Below are positions 27,806 through 35,058 of a stretch of 64,000 nucleotides of DNA, in pieces. The stretch spans positions 6,453,876-6,517,875 of the forward strand of contig OY848918.1 in assembly GCA_963693285.1 (NCBI GenBank). The letters are read 5' to 3'. The notes below the pieces were generated by a model. That model was not told where the DNA came from, did not search any database, and was given only the letters and a program-made list of their open reading frames with translations. Every line of letters begins with the position of its first letter. Within the stretch, counting starts at the first letter, position 1. Both the position numbers and the translations under genes were made by a program. The DNA is from Xestospongia muta. Lineage: Eukaryota; Porifera; Demospongiae; Haplosclerida; Petrosiidae.

Positions 27806-30800
27806 ATGGCTGAAAATTCAGCTGCTGCAAATAGTGACGGAACTGATACTGACTCCACATCACTTGTTTCAGTTCAGTCAAATGTGACAAAACCAAGAGT
27901 GCAAGCAGAGCCATCACGTGCTTCAACAACCACACCAAAAACGATATTCAGTCCTTTAGAAAGTCAAGTTGTACATCAACAAGTTGAAGGACTGTTTGGT
28001 GTCCAACTCGTTCGGCCATCTGAGGCTACAATACTTACAGATCACAATACTCTATATTAAGGTGACAGACTACTCTTGTATTTCATAAAAAATATCTTTT
28101 GTTTTTAGTTTAACATACTCCATATTTATCATAGTGAATATCATGTTTTAACAGGTTATCCTATTGGTCCTGATTACCTCAAAGGCTTAATACTCAACCA
28201 GTCAAATAAAGCCAAGATTCGTCCTGTGTTGTTGTTTCTTCGTGGTCTTCCAAAAAGTGGTAAAACTGAAGCCATTTCTCATCTTCTGGAACGTTATGTT
28301 GATCCAAATTCTATTACACCTATGACACCAATGAATGAGAAGATGGAAAGAAATTATCATGAACTCATTAGTTTCCATTCTGAAAAAAATCTCACTATTA
28401 CTGGAGTCCCTAAGGAGTCTAGTTGTGCCTTTGGCATACTCTCTGCTTTAAGGAATGAGCATTTAAAAAAAAGCAAAGTACCACTATTCAATTTTCCTGA
28501 AAGATCTCCCCGATGCTTTGGAGACAGTGCACGTGAATTAGATGATCATCTTTGTCGTATATTCCAATTTCTATATGAGTATGAGCACACTCCTAGAGGA
28601 AATGAGGTCACTGATAAAGAACAAGAGTATGCTCGACGTCTACACAAGTTGCTTCCAGAAGGTATTGCGCTGATCAATATATGGAACATTGCTAGCAATG
28701 AAAAGATCCTCCATTTTTTGTCAGCACTACGTGGTCTTCTTTATAACAGTCATGTGTGGCTCTTCATGGATATGGATCGAGATCTTGAAAATCTTAACAA
28801 ACCACCTGAATTCCCTGAAGTAACAAGCAATGCTGTTTGTAGTAATGATGATCAGTCAGTTCTCATGAAATGGCGTCCTCGCCTTCATTACTTGCTTCGT
28901 TTCAGTAGAATGAGTGAAAGTATACATGATAGCAGAGAGGGTGTGTGCACTGTATTTGCTAAGCACAGGAACACTTCCAATGAAGATTTAAAACATAAAG
29001 TACTTAAAGCTAAAGTACAGCAAGCTGCTAAACATATTGGAGTGTCGTCTCTCATAGAGCCAAAAATTGAGACCATTAATTTTGATAGTTCTGGCATTTC
29101 TAATGATTCGTCTCTTCGTCTTTATGAAAAAATGCAGCTTTCTATATTTGACACATGTTCTGAAGATGTTCCTCTCTCTTGGTTATTTCTTCGCAGTCTG
29201 TTTTACAATTCACAAGAGATATTTGTTGAGAAGTCAGAGTTGATCAATAAAGCTAAAAAATGTGGTATGAATGTTGACTCAGTTAATAAGTTTTGCGAGT
29301 TTTATACTTCTTTTGGCAGTATATTTGATCTTAGTCTCATTAATCCAGACTATCCCTATGTCATAGTAAAACCAATGGGTTTTCTAAATTCTTTAGAAAA
29401 AATTTTAAGCCCTAAAGATAGAATTCGTCAACAGTATCCCACATTAGTGAATGGGATCATTTCAGAGAAAGCATGCCAAGTTTTTGGAGGGAATTGGTCA
29501 AAATTCATAGAAGCCTTAGTGTCTGTCAATTTGGCCACAAAGGTGTCTAGTTCAAAGTTGGATGTAGATGATCTTGACCCAAATGATGCATACTACTTCA
29601 TCCCTTTAAGTCGCAATGGGAGTCTCATAATGGAAGCAGATCCTACAGCAGTTCACATCATCATCAATGTCGATACACCTCACGTGTTCCAACAGGCAAC
29701 ATTTGCTAAGTATCTCTTGGGATCATTACAAGAACCAAAGCTTATACCATGTAATAATCCTAACAAAACAATTATCAAAGAGTGTTCTACTAACACTACC
29801 ATCACTCTTGTCTCTCACAGTCCTGCCACTAAAATATCCATCAGCCAAGTAAATTTTCAAGTTTGCTCTCATATTATTAAAGCTTACAGCAAGATTGCTG
29901 AAACATGCAAATTTGGAACTACAAAATATAAATTTGTTATGATTTGTGCCAAAAATGGAGTTCCTGCTGTAAAAGATATTCCATCATGTCAGTACCATGT
30001 ACTACCAAACAACAAACTCTGTGCTGTGTGTGAGATAGCTGGGAGAGTCGACAATCAGTTAAAAATGTGGAACAAAGCTCTGAGAAAGGTCAGCAACTAT
30101 ACAGGACTTAGACATTACAATCATTATGTTTTATATTATAGCACCCAATTCCAGAAGATTGTATGCCAAATGAAGGTTAGTTAATACAATGTATTTAGTA
30201 TTATATTCACATATCACTATATAGAACTAAAAGAATCAGAACCTAAATGGATTGCTGAAAAAATTGCTTCATATATTCCAGCAATAGTTCCATATCTTTC
30301 TGAAGCACTTGAAGTTGACCCAACTCCAAGCACTGATGTCAGTGCAATGATCTCATTATGGAATAAGAAACTCATCAAAAGTTGTGGAACAGAGAATGTA
30401 GAACCAAGACGAATGCTGGCAAGGAAACTGATAGAAATGAGTGCTAAGTTCTGTAGTTCAATGGAAATTAGCTATAAAATTGAGGTAGAATCTTTTTTTG
30501 AAAGTCTTGCCAAGGATCTAGATGTTCATGGTAAATTCAATTGACCTAATTACATTTTGTATTGTCAATTTTTTATATAGCTCCAAGTATTAAACAATTG
30601 CAAGTTATGATCCCATCAACTGAACAAGGTAAATAAAATGAAGCTTATGTTTTTAATAAGGAATTAATTTATTAACTAATAATAGGGTAGTAATAATAGA
30701 CATGGGTTTTGTATCTTCCACTTCAAATTCCTAGATCTCATGCATGTGATGGCTCTTGATTAAGAATCAAAATGAATCCTTAGTTTTAAATCATAGTTGA

Positions 30801-33800: not shown

Positions 33801-35058
33801 AAAAAGAAATATCAGTTGAGCAATCTACAGGTATTATAATTGCTGTGATGTTACATATGCTATGCGCACATCACAATAGGTACTATTGATATTGCTGATT
33901 GCAATCTTTTTAATATAGCTACTACTGATGTCAATGCAGCTACTAATAATGGTACTGATGTTCATACAGCTGCTAATCGTCTTGCATATTTTTGCAAAGT
34001 ATATTATGAAAAGATTGCACCCTTGGAATGGTCAGTAAAGTTAAGTATTGTGAGACGTCTCAATGCTCTTGAAGAGGTATTCTATAGTATTAATAATTTT
34101 TACTGAATTTCTATGGGTTTTCTTCTTTAGTATATGAAAAGACAGCGTCCTAAAGCTGATGCTGCTGATTATTTTGACAAAGTGCTACCTTCGGGAAATT
34201 TTTTTAAATTTGATCTAAATATTGATACTCAGAAACCTCCTCAAGGGTGGAGTATATATCAGTTAACAACAAATTCAGAAGTCAGTCAGTGATTATAAAA
34301 ATGTTTTTGTTTATGCATTTTTGTAGTTTGAATATGAGTTCATTGATAAGTTTGCAAGTGATGAATTGCCAGAACCACCATCTTGTACAGTGAAAGTATA
34401 TGCCAAAGACAGTCCAGACACAGAAGAAATTTTTCATTATCTGGTTCCATTGAAAGGTGTGAACAATCCAGAAAAGATAACTATTCATTTATCACTGAGG
34501 AGTAGTCCAGTGGCAGGTACTTTACATATATACTTCCTAATTATCATTATATTAATAACCACTTGTTTATCCATTTGTATAACCTTTAACATGACACATG
34601 CTAAATTCTTTTATTATAGAGTCAATATCTGAGACATCAAACTTGACTAATCAAAGTAGTACTTCATTAAATCCTGCAGTAGCTAGGAGAGCTTTACTTC
34701 AATGTACTGATATTATCATTGAGTCAAGTATAGATCCCTTTGCTCTAGCAAGAAAGCTTTGTGCAAAAGAAATCATTTCTGAGGACATTTACAAGAAAGT
34801 ACGAGATAAGGAAACTAAAGATTCAACAGAGGATCGTCTGGACAAGATTTTAGATCATTTAAAAGATCGCGTTCAAAATAATGCTGATATTTTTACAAAA
34901 TTTCTAAATGTTTTGAGAGAATTAAGTCGAAATGACTTAACTGATATAATTATGGCAAAGTATTTCAGGTTGGTAGCTTTAGCAAGTATATCACTTAATT
35001 GTAATCTTTCTTCTTTAGAATTACAACACAAATTGAAACTGAAATTGAGTTAAAATAG
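27806..35058 (+). CDS. Gene E: full-length double Roc-COR receptor with Death, ZU5, UPA and CARD; nonsense codon in exon 1
   Basis: Exons: 27806-28061, 28155-30088, 30142-30175, 30225-30530, 30581-30628, 30865-33164, 33220-33310, 33360-33830, 33919-34076, 34131-34280, 34327-34516, 34620-34968, 35019-35058 (TAG); about 2,108 codons if exon 1 is used. Roc1 P-loop GLPKSGKT about 116-123, COR1 about 430-730, Death about 742-843. Roc2 P-loop GPPQVGKT 888-895, G3 DTGGQ at 1124, G4 GTNAD at 1210, COR2 from about 1282. ZU5 about 1657-1813, UPA about 1835-1979, CARD-like about 1985-2095. A Ser/Asp/Glu-rich insert of about 150 residues sits between G1 and G3 of Roc2. Codon 85 is TAA (28058-28060), aligning with GAA in gene B; exons 2-13 are fully open. 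The gene could be rescued by the exon at 26142, or be a recent pseudogene. Confidence 0.85.
28058..28060 (+). other. Premature TAA at the end of gene E exon 1
   Basis: The frame from ATG 27806 meets TAA one base before the exon's donor (28061|GTGACA). The homologous codon in gene B is GAA (9434-9436), again one base before the donor, so a single G-to-T change explains it. Confidence 0.75.

What the first reader, a model, noticed from the sequence alone, without database searches (positions are those of the whole stretch)
27806..35058. Receptor family with two Roc-COR modules flanking a Death domain, followed by ZU5, UPA and CARD
Seen directly: two P-loops (GLPKSGKT and GPPQVGKT), two COR-like regions each ending in a C-x2-C pair, a Death domain between them, then ZU5, UPA and a CARD-like fold, all joined by phase-compatible exons. 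Known: Roc-COR occurs once in Roco proteins (LRRK, MFHAS1, DAPK1), and ZU5-UPA-Death occurs in PIDD, UNC5 and ankyrins. I know of no described protein that combines both in duplicate. Inference: a cytoplasmic nucleotide-switch receptor or scaffold that nucleates Death-fold complexes, possibly in innate immunity.
Basis: partly seen in the sequence, partly recalled or inferred. Interest (0 to 1): 0.88.

Follow-up and report, generated by a model that had tools for sequence, protein, structure and literature searches.

The report
Sponge receptor with two GTPase modules
A sponge-like genome carries a tandem gene family whose proteins join two Roc-COR GTPase modules, one of them apparently decayed, to a tail that looks like the self-cutting ZU5 and CARD-like tail of animal inflammasome sensors.

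Summary
The architecture is largely real. One gene (27806-35053, + strand, 12 exons, all introns GT-AG, 2102 codons open) encodes two Roc-COR modules in a row, then ZU5, a UPA-position segment and a CARD-like end. Module 1 is invisible to Pfam, but its confident model (pLDDT 86, pTM 0.89) has only Roco proteins as its ten best matches. Its P-loop is eroding and its G3/G4 motifs are lost, so it is probably a pseudo-GTPase. Module 2 keeps G1, G3 and G4 and passes Pfam COR-A. The exon 4 donor and linking exon 5 are conserved in seven array copies, gene C included, favouring one gene. The 'Death domain' found no support, UPA is positional, and CARD is sub-threshold. New here: the ZU5 ends in H/Q-F-C/S, where PIDD, CARD8 and NLRP1 cut themselves; both modules end in C...H...C-x2-C; and the genome holds at least 148 COR-A matches above cut-off. 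Best reading: a GTPase-gated cytosolic sensor that releases a UPA-CARD-like fragment. The mechanism is inferred. New variant of a known kind (Roco).

The parts
27806..27998 (+). Exon 1: start codon and 64-residue low-complexity N-terminus
   Evidence: reading frame kept in copy L010
28155..30088 (+). Exon 2: module 1, degenerate Roc + COR-A + COR-B (residues 65-709)
28244..28267 (+). Module 1 P-loop GLPKSGKT
   Evidence: Lys in 40 of 60 rows
30020..30031 (+). Module 1 terminal C-x2-C
   Evidence: C597 59/60, H614 58/60, C622 55/60, C625 58/60 (numbers within the module)
30142..30175 (+). Exon 3: 34-nt mini-exon
   Evidence: splice sites kept in L010 and in window gene E
30225..30530 (+).
30581..30628 (+). 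Exon 5: 48-nt link joining the two halves in phase 1; open in the seven long-form copies (gene C included)
30865..33164 (+). Exon 6: module 2, Roc + COR (residues 839-1605)
   Evidence: Pfam COR-A 3.4e-10; alignment to P0001 over residues 6-737 of its 766
30948..30971 (+). Module 2 G1, GPPQVGKT
31656..31670 (+). Module 2 G3, DTGGQ
31914..31928 (+). Module 2 G4-like GTNAD
32130..32537 (+). COR-A match of module 2
33105..33116 (+). Module 2 terminal C-x2-C
   Evidence: C727, H734 and C747 7/7, C750 5/7
33220..33310 (+). Exon 7: linker
33360..33830 (+). Exon 8: ZU5
   Evidence: at least 150 matches of the exon in the genome, itself included
33776..33784 (+). HFC: putative self-cleavage site (F|C) at the ZU5 C-terminus
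   Evidence: compared with passages of PMC3210808 and PMC8081665
33919..34076 (+). Exon 9
34131..34280 (+). Exon 10: first part of the UPA-position segment
   Evidence: position only
34327..34516 (+). Exon 11: second part of the UPA-position segment
   Evidence: related exon in 23 of the fetched ZU5 loci after removing repeats
34620..35053 (+). Exon 12: CARD-like domain and stop codon
   Evidence: at least 150 matches of the exon in the genome, itself included

Best explanation
It is a single multi-exon gene for a cytosolic Roco-type sensor. Shown by sequence or model: a degenerate Roc-COR (module 1) is joined through an uncharacterised conserved domain of about 100 residues to a second Roc-COR with intact-looking GTPase motifs (module 2), then ZU5, a UPA-position segment and a CARD-like end. 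Inferred: the two COR parts pack as a single-chain counterpart of a Roco dimer, in which only module 2 switches with GTP and module 1 is a regulatory pseudo-GTPase. The ZU5 cuts itself at F|C (F|S in some paralogues), leaving the UPA-CARD-like tail bound. A signal read by the Roc-COR half, or destruction of that half, frees the tail, which assembles with other CARD-like partners and triggers a defence or death response. This is the logic of PIDD and NLRP1/CARD8 with Roco GTPases in place of LRR/NACHT.
For: Gene structure. Predicted fold of module 1. COR-A in module 2, G motifs, and alignment of 732 of its 766 residues to P0001, a NACHT-LRR-Roc-COR protein. Exon 4 donor at the same place in 20 of 20 loci examined (19 distinct places), and exon 5 open as AP(S/T)IKQ(L/F)Q.M.. 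in the seven long-form loci, with synonymous changes upstream of its Met (read). dN/dS 0.22-0.49 in 11 of 12 comparisons. F 27/28 and C-or-S 27/28 at the ZU5 end (gene C counted twice, once as L040). ZU5 in 14 of 16 members. The order Roc-COR then ZU5 recurs in an ankyrin-repeat gene on contig C15.
Against: No transcript, biochemistry or species name. The Death domain found no support, UPA was not recognised, and CARD is sub-threshold. The module 2 model failed (pLDDT 39). The nucleophile is mostly Cys, not Ser, and no conserved His lies at the NLRP1/CARD8 spacing of about 27 residues. Module 1 also occurs alone. Exon 4 versus L010 has dN/dS 1.27 (100 codons, few changes). The 3' exons are less well kept than exons 1-5: in L044 the exon 11 donor is not GT and no CARD-like exon was found; in L042 and gene E exons 7 and 10 differ by lengths not divisible by three and exon 12 aligned poorly; L048 has a stop in module 2. 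Only gene C was shown to be open from end to end.
Confidence: 0.48

Rival explanations
1. Two neighbouring genes: a module-1 protein that ends after exon 4, and a separate Roc-COR-ZU5-CARD-like gene starting in exon 5 or upstream of exon 6.
For: Stand-alone module-1 genes exist in the array (short terminal exons) and in Amphimedon annotation (P0035 878 aa, P0039 834 aa, P0090 789 aa). A Met is conserved in exon 5. The full-length search, limited to proteins of 1156-3678 aa and to words of the first 500 residues, found only P0001, which aligns to module 2.
Against: The exon 4 donor lies at the same place in short and long forms; exon 5 is coding upstream of its Met (synonymous changes, AGT/TCA for Ser) and keeps its phase in the seven long-form copies. 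Module 2 was seen to start right after it in five of the seven; for L015 and L019 only the COR part and ZU5 were seen, further downstream in L048 and L049. No ATG precedes the P-loop inside exon 6.
Confidence: 0.12
2. Scaffold without self-cleavage: module 1, module 2 and the CARD-like end only organise a complex, and the H/Q-F-C/S pattern is structural.
For: Cys rather than Ser in 22 of 28; no conserved His at the NLRP1 spacing; UNC5-like ZU5-UPA modules are not cut (recalled, not tested here).
Against: Near-invariant F and alternation only between C and S (one Y), two of the three nucleophiles named for this chemistry (PMC3210808, passages).
Confidence: 0.3
3. A decaying array in which the fusion has no function.
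For: Gene E is frameshifted in module 1 and the 40.4-45.4 kb copy is a chimera with an out-of-frame junction; gene A appears interrupted by a retroelement; 6 of 73 module-1 matches contain stops; L048 has a stop in module 2; 3' exons of several copies are not kept.
Against: Gene C is fully open; dN/dS well below 1 for both modules, ZU5 and CARD-like; gaps between gene C and copy L010 in exons 1-5 are all multiples of three.
Confidence: 0.1

Closest known systems
Roco proteins (LRRK1/2, MFHAS1, DAPK1; prokaryotic Roco)
   Same: Roc-COR fold in module 1 (by model) and Roc-COR sequence features in module 2 (COR-A and G motifs)
   Different: Two Roc-COR modules in one chain, one with eroded GTPase motifs; C...H...C-x2-C at the end of each COR; ZU5 and CARD-like tail; no kinase or LRR found by Pfam
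NLRP1 / CARD8 (FIIND = ZU5-UPA, then CARD)
   Same: Order ZU5, UPA-position segment, CARD-like at the C-terminus; F-nucleophile motif at the ZU5 end
   Different: Roc-COR instead of NACHT-LRR; F-C instead of F-S; no conserved His at the upstream catalytic spacing; UPA not confirmed
PIDD
   Same: HF-nucleophile motif at the ZU5 end, sensor half before it, death-fold-like end after it
   Different: PIDD has LRRs and two ZU5 domains; nucleophile Ser
Amphimedon queenslandica proteins P0035, P0039, P0090, P0111 (UniRef name 'Death domain-containing' for several)
   Same: Module 1 (38-45% identity over 99-100% of it) followed by a region alignable with the exon 4 domain (P0035 and P0111)
   Different: No module 2, ZU5 or CARD-like end seen in these annotated proteins (748-878 aa; P0082, 1155 aa, has an N-terminal Pfam Death domain instead)
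P0001 (NACHT-LRR-Roc-COR, ENA source, 1447 aa)
   Same: Aligns with module 2 over residues 6-737 of 766 (23% identity)
   Different: NACHT and LRR in front; no module 1 and no ZU5 found by Pfam

Membership tests
Roco (module 2) | COR-A above the Pfam cut-off | tested here: met
   40.4 bits vs 35.3 in the whole protein; 34.7 bits, just under, for the exon alone
Roco (module 2) | G1, G3 and G4 motifs of a Roc GTPase | tested here: met
   GPPQVGKT, DTGGQ, GTNAD by inspection; the Pfam Roc model reaches only 13.2 bits of 27
Roco (module 2) | Roc-COR fold | tested here: inconclusive
   model too poor, pLDDT 39
Roco (module 1) | Roc-COR fold | tested here: met
Roco (module 1) | Pfam Roc or COR-A match | tested here: not met
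   no such family up to E 10
Roco (module 1) | functional-looking G1, G3 and G4 | tested here: not met
   G1 Lys in 40/60; G3 reads IW(D/N) with no Gly three positions on in any of 60; G4 reads FAKH, Asp next in 13/60
ZU5 | Pfam ZU5 above cut-off | tested here: inconclusive
   sub-threshold in the gene (16.2 vs 21 bits); 14 of 16 members match, best 4.7e-4; no PDB chain found by profile
Autoproteolytic ZU5-UPA (PIDD, NLRP1, CARD8) | F followed by a nucleophile (Ser/Cys) at the ZU5 C-terminus | tested here: met
   F 27/28, next residue C 22, S 5, Y 1 (29 rows, one truncated, gene C counted twice)
Autoproteolytic ZU5-UPA (NLRP1, CARD8) | catalytic His about 27 residues before the nucleophile | tested here: inconclusive
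   no conserved His at that spacing; H1725 (52 before) is in 29/29, H1745 (32 before) in 3 rows, H1775 (in HFC) in 18; no alignment to NLRP1 was made; NLRP1 spacing from PMC8081665
Autoproteolytic ZU5-UPA (PIDD, NLRP1, CARD8) | actual self-cleavage | not testable with these tools
   needs expression
UPA | Pfam UPA match | tested here: inconclusive
   none for the spliced exons 10-11; the genome search rang nowhere, controls included
CARD | Pfam CARD above cut-off | tested here: inconclusive
   18.0 vs 23.9 bits; 2 of 3 paralogues also sub-threshold
Death domain (exon 4) | PF00531 match | tested here: not met
   0 of 13 members up to E 1
NLR | NACHT domain | tested here: not met
   no NACHT match in the protein up to E 10

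The most novel reading that the evidence does not exclude
A whole class of inflammasome-like sensors built on Roco GTPases. In one chain, a dead Roc-COR and a live Roc-COR form an intramolecular heterodimer that gates a self-cleaving ZU5 with a cysteine nucleophile and a UPA-CARD-like death-fold tail. The class is expanded to a multigene repertoire in a sponge, so the PIDD/NLRP1 logic would be an ancient animal module used with several kinds of NTPase.
Probability: 0.3. Interest if true: 0.85.

Novelty: new variant of a known kind. Interest (0 to 1): 0.66.

Why it matters
Roco proteins matter for Parkinson's disease (LRRK2), and their mechanism is still debated (abstract of PMC6337361 as shown in the listing). 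A natural single-chain pair with one eroded partner would be a ready test system. A Roc-COR switch fused to a ZU5 with a self-cleavage-like site would link two signalling logics that I did not find joined in the library searched. The size of the COR-A repertoire (at least 148 matches above cut-off) suggests a Roco-based receptor repertoire, comparable to the ROCO candidates reported in brown algae (37 in Ectocarpus; PMC11378527, passages).

Tried and rejected
Rejected: module 1 as an NTPase unrelated to Roc (fold search gives only Roco at the top). Not shown: homology of modules 1 and 2 by profile comparison; hhalign gave probability 0.6% and aligned the NACHT part of P0001, so common origin rests on the shared fold plan and the C...H...C-x2-C set. 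Led nowhere: PDB profile searches for the exon 4 domain (weak hits to RPRD1B, PP2A scaffold and LRRK2 chains, best E 0.016), ZU5 (no hit) and module 2 (30 of 34 hits are NLR-type chains drawn by P0001's NACHT; best GTPase, Der, E 0.023); single-sequence PDB search of module 2 (noise); profile search of module 1 against PDB sequences (one weak NTPase hit); protein search with residues 1075-1830 (no hit, so P0001 itself was missed and this negative is weak); genome-wide UPA search (uninformative); AF2 of module 2. The name 'Death domain-containing' of Amphimedon entries was not taken as evidence: P0110, with that name, lacks the exon 4 region. Pairing of COR-A with CARD-like or ZU5 used only the 150 best-scored matches of each list, hence lower bounds. 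On checking, the weaker state of the 3' exons in other copies was added; for it the confidence of the main reading went from 0.50 to 0.48 and of the decay rival from 0.08 to 0.10. The NLRP1 His row was changed from not met to inconclusive.
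Full report
What is there. The window lies in a 158-Mb genome of 28 contigs.

Module 2. COR-A passes its Pfam cut-off in the whole protein. GPPQVGKT, DSTG, DTGGQ and GTNAD are present, split by a long variable insert. Residues 6-737 of 766 align with P0001, a NACHT-LRR-Roc-COR protein (23% identity, E 2e-38 for the pair). Its model failed with only four sequences (pLDDT 39), so the fold was not tested. Both modules end in Cys...His...Cys-x2-Cys (module 1: 59, 58, 55 and 58 of 60; module 2: 7, 7, 7 and 5 of 7), a possible metal site in the last part of COR.

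One gene or two. Module 1 plus the exon 4 domain also exist alone, in this array and in Amphimedon annotation. I examined 20 of the 30 fetched module-1 loci (19 distinct places, because L013 and L026 overlap). In all 20 a GT donor is at the same place of exon 4. In 7 (L009 = gene C, L010, L015, L019, L032, L036, L037) the next exon reads AP(S/T)IKQ(L/F)Q.M... and runs to a GTA donor; in 12 it stops within about 35 residues; in L030 it reads into the tail of module 2 and on towards ZU5, an internal deletion of module 2. Module 2 was seen to start right behind in 5 of the 7; for L015 and L019 only its COR part and ZU5 were seen, downstream in L048 and L049. L015 and L019 are 97.6% identical. Against copy L010 exons 1-5 have no frame-breaking gap and every splice site is kept; against window gene E likewise for exons 3-5. 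Exon 5 varies by whole codons and by synonymous changes ahead of its conserved Met (read). I take this as good evidence for a single gene in the long form. Further 3' the picture is poorer: in L044 the exon 11 donor is not GT and no CARD-like exon was found; in L042 and gene E exons 7 and 10 differ by lengths not divisible by three and exon 12 aligned poorly. Only gene C was shown open from end to end.

Tail. The ZU5 exon has at least 150 matches in the genome and matches PF00791 below cut-off in the gene, with 14 of 16 members scanned giving a hit. In the 28 rows with letters there (gene C twice), the end reads F (27) followed by C (22), S (5) or Y (1), with His before F in 18. PIDD cuts itself after each ZU5 at HF/S and CARD8/NLRP1 at SF/S, and this chemistry starts from Ser, Thr or Cys (PMC3210808, passages); cutting between ZU5 and UPA is a prerequisite for NLRP1 activation (PMC8081665, passages). 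The NLRP1 catalytic His, about 27 residues upstream, has no conserved counterpart at that spacing. UPA is assigned by position only. The last exon is CARD-like, below cut-off, with at least 150 matches in the genome.

Genome context. COR-A has 150 scored matches, 148 marked over the cut-off (one only with its neighbours), out of 261 first-look candidates. Of these 150, 21 have a CARD-like match within 6 kb downstream on the same strand, against 3 upstream and 0 on the other strand; 7 have ZU5 downstream within 4 kb, against 1 and 0; 2 have both (lists truncated at 150, so lower bounds). On contig C15 an ankyrin-Roc-COR frame precedes a ZU5. So the order Roc-COR, ZU5, death-fold-like end recurs. 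The second, decayed Roc-COR in front was found joined to module 2 only in the C2 array; a genome-wide search with module 2 itself did not complete.

Constraint. Of 12 comparisons, 11 have dN/dS 0.22-0.49 (module 1, module 2, ZU5, CARD-like); the exon 4 domain against L010 gives 1.27 on 100 codons with very few changes.

Against the reading. No transcripts; Death unmatched in 13 of 13 members; UPA unrecognised; Cys in place of Ser; several copies broken (6 of 73 module-1 matches carry stops). The full-length protein search found only P0001 between 1156 and 3678 aa, so the long form is not yet seen in listed proteins; that search uses exact words from the first 500 residues only.

Literature. 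No paper of 5.39 million holds both 'ZU5' and 'Roc-COR'. A search with Amphimedon, Roc, COR, ZU5 and death domain found 99 papers holding at least three of the terms, 20 listed; a search with Roco, Roc-COR, ZU5 and sponge found 2. Of the listed papers holding ZU5, Roc and COR together I looked at PMC8195603 and PMC9573974; in the passages seen the domains are in different proteins. A third, PMC12987431, was seen only as a listing and appears from its title unrelated. A search for duplicated-Roc terms returned 21 papers, 20 listed; judged from the listing alone, none describes such a protein. Further searches were seen as listings only, apart from the papers named here. COR is listed among NLR partner domains in the sponge Dysidea avara (PMC12909245, passages); Roc/COR occurs with TIR, and in one gene with kinase, Death and TIR, in sea anemones (PMC5094078, passages); COR in bacterial conflict systems and ZU5-UPA fused to TRADD-N in animals are described in PMC8195603 (passages); brown-algal ROCO repertoires in PMC11378527 (abstract and passages). 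Subscription literature and preprints were not searched, so novelty in print is limited to this library.

Noticed in passing
window 30918-51631: Two head-to-tail copies of a 10.35-kb stretch, 99.99% identical with one gap; the junction joins exon 2 of the next gene to exon 6 of gene C out of frame. Very recent duplication or an assembly artefact.
   Followed up: partly
window 2-3613, - strand: Open gag-pol-like frame of an LTR retroelement (RT, RNase H, integrase by Pfam) between the upstream part of a long-form copy (L036) and what looks like its module 2 remnant.
   Followed up: partly
window 14010-18327: Array member with module 1, the exon 4 domain, ZU5 and CARD-like but without module 2; its exon 5 equivalent reads into the tail of module 2.
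   Followed up: partly
G000, many contigs: 148 of 150 scored Pfam COR-A matches above cut-off in one animal-like genome, often in tandem arrays, as on C5, C1, C12, C10, C6 and C15.
   Followed up: partly
L069 (C15:1983900-1988600) with L052: Ankyrin-repeat Roc-COR frame followed by ZU5 and a helical end resembling other CARD-like ends by eye.
   Followed up: partly
G000:C2:6.28-6.33 Mb and 6.39-6.43 Mb: Five pairs of array loci about 107-110 kb apart, 97.6-99.9% identical (positions): segmental duplication or retained haplotype.
   Followed up: partly
window 35440-36063: TLC-domain membrane protein frame (PF03798, 32.1 bits) just downstream of gene C, also present at 45789-46412 in the duplicated stretch.
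   Followed up: no
P0003, 652 aa, contig of 6386 bases: 99% identical to module 1 over 96% of it, from an unnamed ENA source: the same or a very close species is in a public data set.
   Followed up: no
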